Positions 27,750 to 30,101 of a DNA stretch of 64,000 nucleotides are shown piece by piece. Positions within the stretch are counted from its first letter, which is position 1, and the number at the start of each line of letters is the position of its first letter. The translations under genes were made by a program, and so were the position numbers. The notes under the pieces were generated by a model. The model did not search any database, had not been told where the DNA came from, and worked only from the letters and a program-made list of their open reading frames with translations. The DNA lies in the NCBI RefSeq assembly GCF_000355695.1, contig NC_020891.1:1302001-1366000 (forward strand), in the 5' to 3' direction. Source of the stretch: Clavibacter nebraskensis NCPPB 2581. GTDB lineage: Bacteria; Actinomycetota; Actinomycetes; Actinomycetales; Microbacteriaceae.

Positions 27750-29212
27750 AGGAGCCCGCCGAGCCCGCCCGCGGTGCCCGGTCCGGTGATCCCGCCGAGC
27801 GTCAGGGGGTCGACGGCGGCCCGCGGCGCGCGGCCGAGGAGCGGGCCGAGCCACAGCTCCGGGAACTCGGGCAGCGTCTTGGCGGTCGTGCCGACGTCGT
27901 CGATCTCGACGCCTGGCACCGCCAGCCCGATGATCGCGCCCGCGGTCGCCATGCGGTGGTCCTCGTAGGCGCGCCACGGGCCGCCGTGCAGCGGGGCGGG
28001 CTCGATCGCGAGGCCGTCGTCGAGCTCCGTGACGGATCCGCCGAGCCCGGTGATCTCCGCCGCCAGCGCCGCGAGCCGGTCGGTCTCGTGCCCGCGCAGG
28101 TGCCCGATGCCCGTGATGCGGCTGGGCCCGTCGGCGAGGGCGGCGAGCGCCACCAGGGCGGGCGCGAGCTCGCCGCCGGTGCTGAGGTCGAGGTCGACGC
28201 CGGGGATCCGCCCGCCCGCCGCGAGACCCGGCCCGCCGTCGACGACGAGCGCGTCGCCCTCCCGCGTGACGGTCGCGCCGAACCGCGGCAGCAGGTGCGC
28301 GAGGTCGGCGCCGACCTGCGTCGTCTCCGCGGGCCAGTCGGGGACCTGGACGCGGCCGCCCGCGACGAGCGCGGCGGCGAGGAACGGCGCGGCGTTGGAG
28401 AGGTCCGGCTCGATCCGCACCTCGCGGCCGGCGATGGGGGAGGAAGGCACGATCCAGAGGCCGGGCTCCGGGCTCTCGATGACGACGCCGCGCTCGGCGA
28501 GCGTGCGGATCGTCATCTCGATGTGCGGCATGCTCGGCAGCTTCTGTCCGGTGTGGCGCAGCCGCAGCCCCTGGGCGAACCGGGGCGCGGCGAGCAGGAG
28601 GCCGGAGACGAACTGGCTGGAGGCGGACGCGTCGATGGCGATCTCGCCGCCCGGCACCTCGCCGGTGCCGTAGAGGCTGAACGGCAGCGCGCGGCGGCCG
28701 TCGTCGTTGACGTCGACCCCGAGGGCCCGGAGCGCCTCGATGGTGCCCCACATGGGGCGGCGCCGGGCGCTCGGGTCGCCGTCGAAGGAGACGGGCCCGA
28801 GGGCCAGCGCGGCGACGGGCGGGAGGAACCGCATCACGGTGCCGGCGAGGCCGCATTCGATGGTGATCCCGCCCGCGAGCTCCGCCGGGGTGATCCGCAG
28901 GTCCGGACCGAACGCGCCGTCGCCGTCGACCTCCTCGATCACGGTGCCGAGGGCCCGCAGCGCCTCGACCATGAGACGGGTGTCGCGCGAGCGGAGCGGC
29001 GCGCGCAGCGTGGAGGGCGAGTCGGCGAGGGCGGACAGGACCAGCTCGCGGTTCGTCAGGCTCTTGGATCCCGGCAGGGGCACGGTCGCGTCGAGCGGCC
29101 CGTCCGCTACGGGCGCTGCCCAGGGCCCGTCGTCCGTCGGCACGGGCGCATGGGTCCGGTCGTCGTCGTCGTACGGACTGAAGGTCGGACCGGAATACCT
29201 GAAGATCTCCAT
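27746..29212 (-). CDS. aroA: 3-phosphoshikimate 1-carboxyvinyltransferase (EPSP synthase)
   Basis: Joins shikimate 3-phosphate and PEP in the sixth step of the shikimate pathway. The 488 residues are longer than the usual 430-450 because of a 40-residue N-terminal leader before VPLPGSKSLTNRELVL. Later blocks include LAGTVMRFLPPVAAL, SSQFVSGLLLAAP, and DLSTGGELAPALVALAALAD; the KTLPEF end motif is present. ATG 29212 follows TACTCT by 9 nt and also has GGTGA upstream. An in-frame extension to 29362 lacks family sequence. Its 5' end overlaps the SigH-type promoter of the divergent sigH gene. Confidence 0.94.
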   Translation of the reverse strand: MEIFRYSGPTFSPYDDDDRTHAPVPTDDGPWAAPVADGPLDATVPLPGSKSLTNRELVLSALADSPSTLRAPLRSRDTRLMVEALRALGTVIEEVDGDGAFGPDLRITPAELAGGITIECGLAGTVMRFLPPVAALALGPVSFDGDPSARRRPMWGTIEALRALGVDVNDDGRRALPFSLYGTGEVPGGEIAIDASASSQFVSGLLLAAPRFAQGLRLRHTGQKLPSMPHIEMTIRTLAERGVVIESPEPGLWIVPSSPIAGREVRIEPDLSNAAPFLAAALVAGGRVQVPDWPAETTQVGADLAHLLPRFGATVTREGDALVVDGGPGLAAGGRIPGVDLDLSTGGELAPALVALAALADGPSRITGIGHLRGHETDRLAALAAEITGLGGSVTELDDGLAIEPAPLHGGPWRAYEDHRMATAGAIIGLAVPGVEIDDVGTTAKTLPEFPELWLGPLLGRAPRAAVDPLTLGGITGPGTAGGLGGLL

Positions 29213-29217
29213 GGGTT
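29192..29217 (+). promoter_or_regulatory. SigH/SigR-type autoregulatory promoter of sigH
   Basis: GGAATA at 29192-29197, 17 nt, then GTT at 29215-29217. This matches the SigH/SigR consensus GGAAYA-N16-17-GTT in every fixed position. It lies inside the 5' end of the divergent aroA gene. Predicted transcription start near 29225, upstream of a strong ribosome binding site (GGGAAGGA, 29263-29270) and an in-frame GTG at 29277. Confidence 0.75.
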
Positions 29218-29328
29218 CACCAGAGTACCGGGCACGCGTCCGGCAGGCCCGGATCCCGGGCCGGGAAGGATCACCCGTGATCACGAGGACAGCACCGGCG
29301 GCCCCGTCCGCCGAGCTCGTGCGCGCCG

Positions 29329-29334
29329 TAGAAT
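29329..29334 (+). promoter_or_regulatory. Second sigH promoter, -10 TAGAAT (leaderless short form)
   Basis: TAGAAT ends 8 nt before the ATG at 29343 and would yield a leaderless message for the short sigma factor, independent of SigH itself. Confidence 0.55.
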
Positions 29335-29342
29335 CTGCCCTG

Positions 29343-30101
29343 ATGGCCACTTCAGGGAACACCAGTCACGACGCGCCGGCCGAGACCACCGGGGGCGACG
29401 CGCCCACCGCATCCGCCGCGCCCGCGGAGCTCGTGGAGGCCGTGGTGCACTCCACCGAGGAGGCCGCCGACCACGCGGAGGCGGAGCGGGCCGAGGTCGA
29501 GGAGCCGCGCAAGGCCCAGCCCGGCGACAACCGCGAGCTCTTCGAGGAGCAGGCGCTCCCGTTCATTGACCAGCTGTACGCCGCGGGCCTGCGCATGACG
29601 CGCAATCCCGCCGACGCGCAGGACCTGGTCCAGGAGACGTTCGTGAAGGCGTACACGGCCTTCCACCAGTTCAAGCAGGGCACGAACCTCAAGGCCTGGC
29701 TGTACCGGATCCTCACGAACACCTTCATCAACAACTACCGCAAGAAGCAGCGGGACCCCTACAACGGCACCATCGACGAGCTCGAGGACTGGCAGCTGGG
29801 CGGCGCGACGAGCGCCACGGCCACCACCACGCGGTCCGCCGAGGCCGAGGCCATCGACCACCTCCCCGATAGCACCGTCAAGGACGCGCTGCAGTCCATC
29901 CCGGAGGACTTCCGCATGGCGGTCTACTTCGCGGACGTCGAGGGCTTCTCCTACCAGGAGATCGCCGACATCATGAAGACCCCCGTGGGCACCGTCATGA
30001 GCCGCCTGCACCGCGGCCGCCGGATGCTGCGGAGCCTGCTTTCCGACTACGCGCGCGAGCGGGGCATCTCCACCGCGCACCTCACTGGAGCGACCAAATG
30101 A
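29343..30101 (+). CDS. sigH: ECF sigma factor of SigH/SigR (thiol-oxidative stress) type
   Basis: A 252-residue group 4 sigma factor. A Glu/Ala-rich N-terminal region of about 60 residues precedes region 2, which includes AGLRMTRNPADAQDLVQETF and KAWLYRILTNTFINNYRK. Region 4 contains IPEDFRMAVYFADVEGFSYQEIA and MSRLHRGRRMLRSLL. It overlaps a zinc anti-sigma gene (ATGA), the SigR-RsrA arrangement that senses disulfide stress in mycothiol-making bacteria. A SigH-type promoter at 29192 indicates positive autoregulation. From that promoter a 274-residue form starting at GTG 29277, with a strong SD, is likely. The short form uses ATG 29343. Confidence 0.93.
   Translation: MATSGNTSHDAPAETTGGDAPTASAAPAELVEAVVHSTEEAADHAEAERAEVEEPRKAQPGDNRELFEEQALPFIDQLYAAGLRMTRNPADAQDLVQETFVKAYTAFHQFKQGTNLKAWLYRILTNTFINNYRKKQRDPYNGTIDELEDWQLGGATSATATTTRSAEAEAIDHLPDSTVKDALQSIPEDFRMAVYFADVEGFSYQEIADIMKTPVGTVMSRLHRGRRMLRSLLSDYARERGISTAHLTGATK

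What the first reader, a model, noticed from the sequence alone, without database searches (positions are those of the whole stretch)
29192..29345. sigH appears built to make two sigma isoforms from two promoters
A perfect SigH/SigR-type site (GGAATA-N17-GTT, 29192-29217) lies 126 bp before the short-form ATG. Between them is an in-frame GTG (29277) with a strong ribosome binding site (GGGAAGGA, 6-nt gap), which adds 22 residues. A second box, TAGAAT (29329), ends 8 nt before ATG 29343 and would give a leaderless short form. So the stress promoter should make the long form and the constitutive promoter the short one. In Streptomyces coelicolor, sigR also has an autoregulated promoter that yields an N-terminally extended, unstable form; the same logic seems to have been built here with a leaderless start.
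Basis: partly seen in the sequence, partly recalled or inferred. Interest (0 to 1): 0.78.

Follow-up and report, generated by a model that had tools for sequence, protein, structure and literature searches.

The report
Two-start, two-promoter stress sigma gene
A bacterial oxidative-stress switch gene appears to carry a second promoter inside its own coding sequence, so that normal growth would give a short protein and stress a longer one; the layout is kept in nearly every relative examined and is a variant of a system known from Streptomyces.

Summary
The described elements are all at the stated coordinates. The SigH box alone is not beyond chance in 64 kb, but comparison settles the architecture. 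Of 166 distinct loci counted as Microbacteriaceae outside Clavibacter, 161 have a GGAAT-N15-20-GTT box before sigH, and 163 have an in-frame TANNNT ending exactly 8 nt before an ATG; so do 49 of 49 loci read from other families of the order and 18 of 18 Clavibacter sequences. The best Shine-Dalgarno start between the two is in frame in 138 of the 149 family loci that have one, without a stop; with one locus per cluster, 51 of 51. The extension shows coding constraint and the -10 box separate DNA-level constraint. So two starts, each tied to its own promoter, are very probably real. The layout is not newly built here: Streptomyces-like loci show the known sigR/sigR' plan with the p1 -10 in the same codon phase. 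New are the near-leaderless short start, its fixed 8-nt gap (6 nt is usual in this genome), and a conserved long-form N-terminal motif, which Clavibacter itself lacks. Induction and instability of the long form are untested.

The parts
29192..29217 (+). SigH-type promoter (p2): GGAATA (29192-29197), 17 nt, GTT (29215-29217); transcription start predicted, not measured, at about 29223-29226
   Evidence: no variable column and no gap among 18 distinct Clavibacter sequences after alignment; GGAAT box in 161 of 166 other family loci
27746..29212 (-). aroA (EPSP synthase), divergent; its ATG (29212-29210) lies inside the spacer of p2 and GGAATA overlaps its Tyr-Ser codons
   Evidence: Pfam PF00275, 340.8 bits; a CAT just before the GTT in 18 of 18 Clavibacter, 148 of 161 family, 1 of 33 order and 2 of 22 class boxes
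29263..29270 (+). Shine-Dalgarno sequence GGGAAGGA of the long form, 6 nt before GTG 29277
   Evidence: best SD start in frame in 18 of 18 Clavibacter and 138 of 149 family loci with a candidate
29277..30101 (+). long SigH isoform, GTG start, 274 aa
   Evidence: no stop between the long start and the short ATG in any in-frame case
29277..29342 (+). 22-codon N-terminal extension, the part unique to the long form
   Evidence: 18 Clavibacter sequences: 7 variable sites of 66, 5 at third positions, 4 peptides, no gaps; dN/dS 0.57 in frame, 1.32 and 1.17 in the other frames, 28 pairs (8 within Clavibacter, 20 other family)
29329..29334 (+). p1 -10 box TAGAAT inside the extension, read as G-TA GAA T-CT so that TAG is out of frame
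   Evidence: in-frame TANNNT with gap 8: 18 of 18, 163 of 166, 49 of 49; peak only at gap 8; rare NTA codons
29343..30101 (+). short SigH isoform, ATG start, 252 aa, ECF sigma factor
   Evidence: TIGR02947, 311.1 bits, cut-off 251.55; Pfam sigma-70 regions 2 and 4
30098..30340 (+). rsrA, zinc-binding anti-sigma factor, overlapping the sigH stop by ATGA
   Evidence: TIGR03988, 63.8 bits, cut-off 62.5; Pfam zf-HC2

Best explanation
sigH has two promoters with one start codon each. In unstressed cells a -35-less TANNNT promoter (p1, TAGAAT 29329-29334) makes an mRNA starting at or within about 2 nt of ATG 29343, which gives the short 252-aa SigH that RsrA holds. When thiol oxidation frees SigH from RsrA, SigH drives the upstream GGAATA-N17-GTT promoter (p2); that mRNA has a leader of about 50 nt and an SD, and is read from GTG 29277 into a 274-aa SigH with 22 extra residues. 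The short ATG has no SD, so the p2 mRNA should make mainly the long form: promoter choice sets the isoform. p1 lies inside the long-form codons, phased so that its TAG is not read as a stop. As in Streptomyces, the long form is probably a short-lived, stress-only amplifier. Shown here: sequence, conservation, reading frame, coding constraint, regulon context. Inferred: transcript starts, induction, instability.
For:: boxes and TANNNT-N8-ATG as counted above; for in-frame ATGs of the family, 162 TANNNT at gap 8 and at most 2 at each other gap from 0 to 17; order 49 at gap 8 and at most 1 elsewhere; out-of-frame ATGs show no gap-8 peak (largest single count 7, at gap 12 in one frame); the codon holding the TA is CTA, GTA, ATA or TTA in the 163 family loci so selected (the TA is part of the selection), while CTA is 15 of 1058 Leu and GTA 11 of 320 Val codons in the sigH core of the family loci; the next residue varies (D, E, G, S, H, R, N, Q); best SD start in frame in 138 of 149 family loci, 18 of 18 Clavibacter, 8 of 8 class loci with box and gap-8 ATG; the 23 family loci of 161 without such a start still have an in-frame ATG or GTG 36 to 117 nt upstream in an open frame; dN/dS 0.57 in frame against 1.32 and 1.17; motif M.{0,7}[AVTILM]L[EDATS] in 106 of 133 distinct family peptides of 13 aa or more, shuffles mean 33, maximum 46 (motif chosen after seeing the peptides); in 57 clusters, gap 8 in 55, box in 53, best SD start in frame in 51 of 51; of 233 family, order and Clavibacter loci, 222 of 222 with a box have 12 or more open codons upstream of the short start; of 11 without, 3 do not. 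GGAAT-N17-19-GTT occurs 39 times in the own genome against 8 for the reversed pattern, some before thioredoxin, MsrA (PMSR), MsrB (SelR), DsbA-like and PALP-family genes.
Against: No transcript or protein was measured. The 8-nt gap is unusual for leaderless-type ATGs of this genome (gap 6: 42, gap 7: 12, gap 8: 2 among 468 ORFs), and a transcript starting at the conserved G before the ATG would have a 1-nt leader; in mycobacteria an RTG at the very 5' end is reported as necessary (PMC4633059, abstract and passages). No -35 is conserved. The Clavibacter extension lacks the N-terminal motif common in relatives. dN/dS of 0.57 is only moderate purifying selection. Of the 138 in-frame family starts, 9 are TTG, 33 rest on an SD match of only 4 bases, and 5 give 10 residues or fewer, 3 of them 3 residues. 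In other families of the order only 11 of 18 best SD starts are in frame, and 15 of the 33 loci tested have no SD start of 4 or more. Several loci without a SigH box keep the 8-nt gap (L258, L273, L274, L275, L279). Counts are not phylogenetically independent beyond the 57-cluster recount, and the frame losses are few (3).
Confidence: 0.82

Rival explanations
1. Only the long form is made; the TANNNT before the ATG is a by-product of a conserved protein motif such as L-D-W-x-V-M.
For: W or L at residue -3 is frequent in the family (68 and 55 of 163) and D at -4 in 81 of 163; some class loci carry W-rich extensions.
Against: TA is always in a rare NTA codon, the middle codon varies while TA and T do not, the gap to the ATG is fixed at 8, and in the order set the residue at -4 differs (mostly G, also P, L, A, S) with TANNNT intact.
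Confidence: 0.05
2. Only the short form is made; the upstream start and open frame are chance in GC-rich DNA, and p2 merely adds a long leader to the same protein.
For: High GC keeps frames open: frame +1 is also open for 60 nt or more in 129 of 161 family loci.
Against: Best SD start in frame in 138 of 149 (a third expected by chance); an in-frame ATG or GTG 8 or more codons upstream in 157 of 161 against 32 and 2 in the other frames, the last frame being closed by the TAG of the -10 itself; dN/dS below 1 only in frame 0 and a conserved N-terminal motif; no SD before most short ATGs.
Confidence: 0.06
3. Both forms are made, but the long form is not unstable; it differs in RsrA affinity, promoter preference or core competition.
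For: The Clavibacter extension (22 aa) is shorter than that of Streptomyces sigR' (58 residues in PMC5472188, 55 in PMC4921905) and, by eye, unlike it; no degradation evidence exists here.
Against: Homology to the Streptomyces system, whose extension makes the protein a Clp substrate (PMC5472188, section 4), and a short conserved N-terminal hydrophobic motif in most relatives, which would suit a degron.
Confidence: 0.3

Closest known systems
sigR-rsrA of Streptomyces coelicolor (sigRp1/sigRp2, sigmaR and sigmaR'). PMC5472188: abstract and sections 4, 6, 11 read; PMC4921905: passages; Kim 2009 and Kim 2012: seen only as citations
   Same: Homologous sigma factor and anti-sigma gene; SigR-type autoregulated upstream promoter giving an N-terminally extended form; downstream promoter giving the short form; p1 -10 inside the long-form codons in the same codon phase. 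In 4 of 6 Streptomyces-like loci the ATG-to-GTC count is 58 codons, as published; L185 gives 77 and L179 was not matched by the search string.
   Different: In Streptomyces the short form has a leader, an AGGAGGTG ribosome site and a GTC start; here there is no SD and the ATG lies 8 nt from the -10. Extension 22 aa here, with a different N-terminal sequence.
Mycobacterium tuberculosis sigE (leaderless p1 and ECF-dependent p2), PMC4921905 passages
   Same: A stress sigma gene with a leaderless downstream promoter and an upstream promoter recognisable by SigE or SigH.
   Different: A different sigma factor; sigEp1 has a WhiB7 motif, whereas no conserved -35 or flanking element was found for p1 here.
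sigH-rshA of Corynebacterium glutamicum, PMC3489674 passages
   Same: Homologous operon with several promoters, TAGAAT among the -10 boxes.
   Different: Mapped starts lie 22, 89 and 93 nt upstream of the start codon; 'isoform' occurs in that text only in a reference title.

Membership tests
SigR/SigH-RsrA thiol-stress system | SigH_actino sigma factor | tested here: met
   TIGR02947, 311.1 bits against cut-off 251.55
SigR/SigH-RsrA thiol-stress system | adjacent RsrA-type zinc anti-sigma factor | tested here: met
   TIGR03988, 63.8 bits against cut-off 62.5, just above; zf-HC2
SigR/SigH-RsrA thiol-stress system | regulon promoters GGAAT-N18-GTT before thiol-redox genes | tested here: met
   39 sites in the own genome against 8 for the reversed pattern; of 30 sites read, 23 have an ORF of 80 aa or more starting within 300 nt, and 9 of these scanned include thioredoxin, MsrA, MsrB and a DsbA-like protein; sequence evidence only
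sigmaR/sigmaR' dual-isoform loop | autoregulated upstream promoter | tested here: met
   by sequence and conservation only
sigmaR/sigmaR' dual-isoform loop | in-frame upstream start giving an extended form | tested here: met
   by frame, constraint and conservation only
sigmaR/sigmaR' dual-isoform loop | long form unstable (Clp substrate) | not testable with these tools
   needs a pulse-chase
sigmaR/sigmaR' dual-isoform loop | induction of the upstream promoter by thiol oxidants | not testable with these tools
   needs RNA data
Streptomyces sigR short form | leadered, SD-led GTC start | tested here: not met
   ATG, no SD, -10 box 8 nt upstream
actinobacterial leaderless gene | TANNNT placed so that transcription starts at the start codon | tested here: inconclusive
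   TANNNT present, but gap 8 instead of the usual 6

The most novel reading that the evidence does not exclude
In this order (163 of 166 family loci and 49 of 49 loci read from other families) sigH keeps a promoter inside its own codons: a -10 box held at a fixed codon phase and exactly 8 nt before the short start, two bases off the usual leaderless spacing so that its TAG is never read as a stop by the long isoform. The start of transcription thereby decides, by presence or absence of a leader, both which ribosome-entry mode is used and whether the sigma factor carries a conserved N-terminal destabilising tag.
Probability: 0.35. Interest if true: 0.68.

Novelty: new variant of a known kind. 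Interest (0 to 1): 0.5.

Why it matters
It suggests that the Streptomyces dual-isoform sigma loop is old in the class rather than a Streptomyces speciality, and gives a clean natural case in which promoter choice would switch one gene between near-leaderless and SD-led translation. It also implies that sigH start annotations in the order may need two starts, and it makes the tag hypothesis testable in easily grown soil bacteria.

Tried and rejected
Chance match of the SigH box: not excluded by the box alone, excluded by conservation. Conserved protein motif instead of a promoter: rejected by codon use and the gap histogram. Stop avoidance as the sole reason for the gap of 8: weakened, since gap 7 would also avoid stops and several loci without a box keep gap 8; shared ancestry with frame-preserving indels could explain much of the constant phase. 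A -35 element for p1: none conserved. The raw variable-site counts for box and leader are inflated by an unaligned 1-nt indel and are replaced (box 0 variable columns, leader 8 variable and 2 gap columns, extension 7 variable and 0 gap columns). The aroA reference was off by one base and gave no family; corrected. Experimental starts for this family in print: Kim 2012 is not held and Kim 2009 was seen only as a citation, so what they say about other actinomycetes was not checked. Among the titles listed (lists capped at 10 or 20 where more papers matched) none is about Microbacteriaceae sigH isoforms or a leaderless sigH short form.
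Full report
Where it is. The window lies in a 3.06-Mb single-contig genome whose SigH is 95 to 98 percent identical to three named Clavibacter records. The order of genes is aroA (minus strand), sigH, rsrA, then a GNAT acetyltransferase.

Is it chance? The SigH box by itself could be: two matches of GGAAT-N16-20-GTT in the window against 0.86 expected. I therefore collected sigH loci: the 80 best of 560 relatives among named genome contigs, 18 Clavibacter genomes, and samples of family, order and class. 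Of 281 loci with a recognisable core, 257 were distinct and had enough upstream DNA: 18 Clavibacter, 166 counted as other Microbacteriaceae (74 named contigs, 92 unnamed), 49 of other families of the order, 24 of other orders. Seven of the 74 named contigs bear titles that do not say Microbacteriaceae (titles) and are counted by likeness. The order and class loci are the best-scoring ones plus, for the order, a chosen spread over families; they are not random draws: 49 of the 130 order genomes outside the family that had a match, and 24 loci of the 141 class-sample genomes with a match.

The upstream promoter. GGAAT with GTT 15-20 nt later lies upstream of sigH in 18 of 18, 161 of 166, 33 of 49 and 22 of 24 loci; with GGAAC allowed the order count is 44 of 49. 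In this genome GGAAT-N17-19-GTT occurs 39 times against 8 for the reversed control. Of 30 of these sites read, 23 are followed within 300 nt by an ORF start and 7 are not. Nine of those ORFs were scanned: thioredoxin, MsrA, MsrB, a DsbA-like protein, a PALP enzyme, an FMN oxidoreductase, a protein with a mycothiol maleylpyruvate isomerase N-terminal domain, an aconitase-family protein and a luciferase-like monooxygenase. This fits a thiol-stress regulon, though many sites are likely chance. In most Microbacteriaceae boxes a CAT, the aroA start on the other strand, sits just before the GTT (148 of 161), but 13 lack it, and in other families of the order 32 of 33 lack it, so aroA coding alone cannot explain the box.

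The downstream promoter. An in-frame TANNNT ending 8 nt before an ATG occurs in 18 of 18, 163 of 166 and 49 of 49 loci, and in 8 of 24 of the class set. The three family exceptions have gap 7 (L252, L255) or a GTG with gap 6 (L244). The gap histogram is a spike: for family in-frame ATGs, 162 at gap 8 and 0 to 2 at any other gap; out-of-frame ATGs show no gap-8 peak, with a largest count of 7 at gap 12. The TA sits in a CTA, GTA, ATA or TTA codon, rare elsewhere in the same genes (CTA 15 of 1058 Leu, GTA 11 of 320 Val, ATA 5 of 546 Ile), while the codon after it varies. That is DNA-level constraint, as expected of a -10 box. No -35 is conserved, which is also reported for M. tuberculosis promoters (PMC3898074, passages). 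Among in-frame ATGs of 468 ORFs in 864 kb of the own genome, TANNNT peaks at gap 6 (42), then 7 (12), with 2 at gap 8; with looser ORF settings the figures are 43, 14 and 2, a second Microbacteriaceae genome gives 22, 9 and 0, and the order genome G281 has too few to tell (3, 0, 0). sigH is thus off the usual spacing. With gap 6 a TAG or TAA would be read as a stop by the long form; with gap 8 it is not. The base before the ATG is G in 91 percent and the one before that C or T in 96 percent of 163 family loci, whereas ordinary gap-6 genes have C before the ATG (31 of 42). I infer that transcription may start at that G, leaving one untranslated base.

The long form. Between the predicted p2 start and the short ATG, the best SD-preceded start is in frame in 18 of 18 Clavibacter, 138 of 149 family loci with a candidate (161 tested), 11 of 18 order loci (33 tested) and 8 of 8 class loci; none of the in-frame cases has a stop. 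Of the 138, 66 are ATG, 63 GTG and 9 TTG; 33 rest on a 4-base SD match; 5 give 10 residues or fewer, so a few are probably not the true start. The 23 family loci left over still have an open frame with an in-frame ATG or GTG. Collapsing the family to 57 clusters at 85 percent core identity gives gap 8 in 55, box in 53 and in-frame starts in 51 of 51. Extension codons, start and last five codons left out, evolve with dN/dS 0.57 in frame against 1.32 and 1.17 in the other frames (28 pairs, 8 within Clavibacter and 20 from the rest of the family); substitutions fall 111 at third positions against 75 and 64, while the 45 nt upstream show no such excess (103 against 117 and 126). In Clavibacter the extension has no gaps while the leader has. 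The N-terminus is conserved in the family: 106 of 133 distinct peptides of 13 aa or more fit M.{0,7}[AVTILM]L[EDATS], shuffles at most 46 (I chose the motif after seeing the peptides). Some loci of other families start alike, such as MLVVLE in L165 and L287. Clavibacter's MITRTAPAAPS does not fit.

How it likely works. The short ATG has no SD of 4 or more in 18 of 18 Clavibacter, 147 of 163 family and 46 of 49 order loci, so the p2 mRNA should be read from its SD-led start. Hence each promoter has its own product. By homology, SigH released from RsrA fires p2 and makes the long form.

What it is related to. Six loci (L170, L171, L178, L179, L185, L187) look like Streptomyces sigR; the records are unnamed and I recognised them by the published GTC start and ribosome site. 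They have GGAATG boxes. In four of them the ATG-to-GTC distance is 58 codons, as published for sigR' in PMC5472188 (section 4); L185 gives 77 and L179 did not match the search string. PMC4921905 gives 55 residues. In each of the 24 class loci a TANNNT whose first T is at codon position 2 lies between box and core; in the 16 without a gap-8 ATG the tally is 16 at position 2 and 1 at position 3. In all 257 loci, TANNNT in the 237 nt upstream of the core is at position 2 in 281 cases against 20 and 40 at positions 1 and 3, while in the first 237 nt of the core it is 6 against 30 and 12. So p1 inside the long frame appears to be inherited from a common ancestor, as far as these loci reach; in the order the short start lies next to p1.

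Losses. Of 233 family, order and Clavibacter loci, 222 of 222 with a box (GGAAT or GGAAC, spacer 17-19) have 12 or more open codons upstream of the short start; of 11 without, 3 do not (L244, L252, L273; Fisher p 8e-5, not corrected for kinship; the threshold of 12 was mine). L244 has no box and has a GTG start with the usual gap 6 and TAG in frame. Against a strict link, L258, L273, L274, L275 and L279 lack a box but keep gap 8.

Verdict. Induction, isoform abundance and stability are unmeasured.

Noticed in passing
window 53966-53990 (+): A second SigH-type box, GGAATA-N16-GTT, about 40 nt before an aconitase-family gene (leuC by my reading of its N-terminus); a possible further regulon member.
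   Followed up: partly
window 29192-29217: Codes overlap: aroA start codon and Tyr-Ser codons on one strand, SigH -35 and -10 on the other; the CAT is kept in 148 of 161 family boxes but in 1 of 33 of other families of the order.
   Followed up: partly
window 29307-29339 and 29421-29453: The extension ends with SAELVRAVESA and the short form carries a similar PAELVEAVVHS 38 residues on; possibly an internal repeat.
   Followed up: no
L098 and L099 (G007:C1:1365357-1366177): sigH is matched in two pieces that part near query residue 237 in this genome, the only one of the 18 Clavibacter genomes so; possibly a sequencing error.
   Followed up: no
L024 and L034: Records titled Stenotrophomonas maltophilia and Planococcus hold Microbacterium-like sigH loci; probably contaminated or misnamed assemblies.
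   Followed up: no
L167, L168, L173, L181, L184 upstream of sigH: Upstream frames in other orders carry a W-rich stretch such as LSWAEWP or LDWPEW; Streptomyces-like loci have LDWTVL or the like. Function unknown.
   Followed up: no
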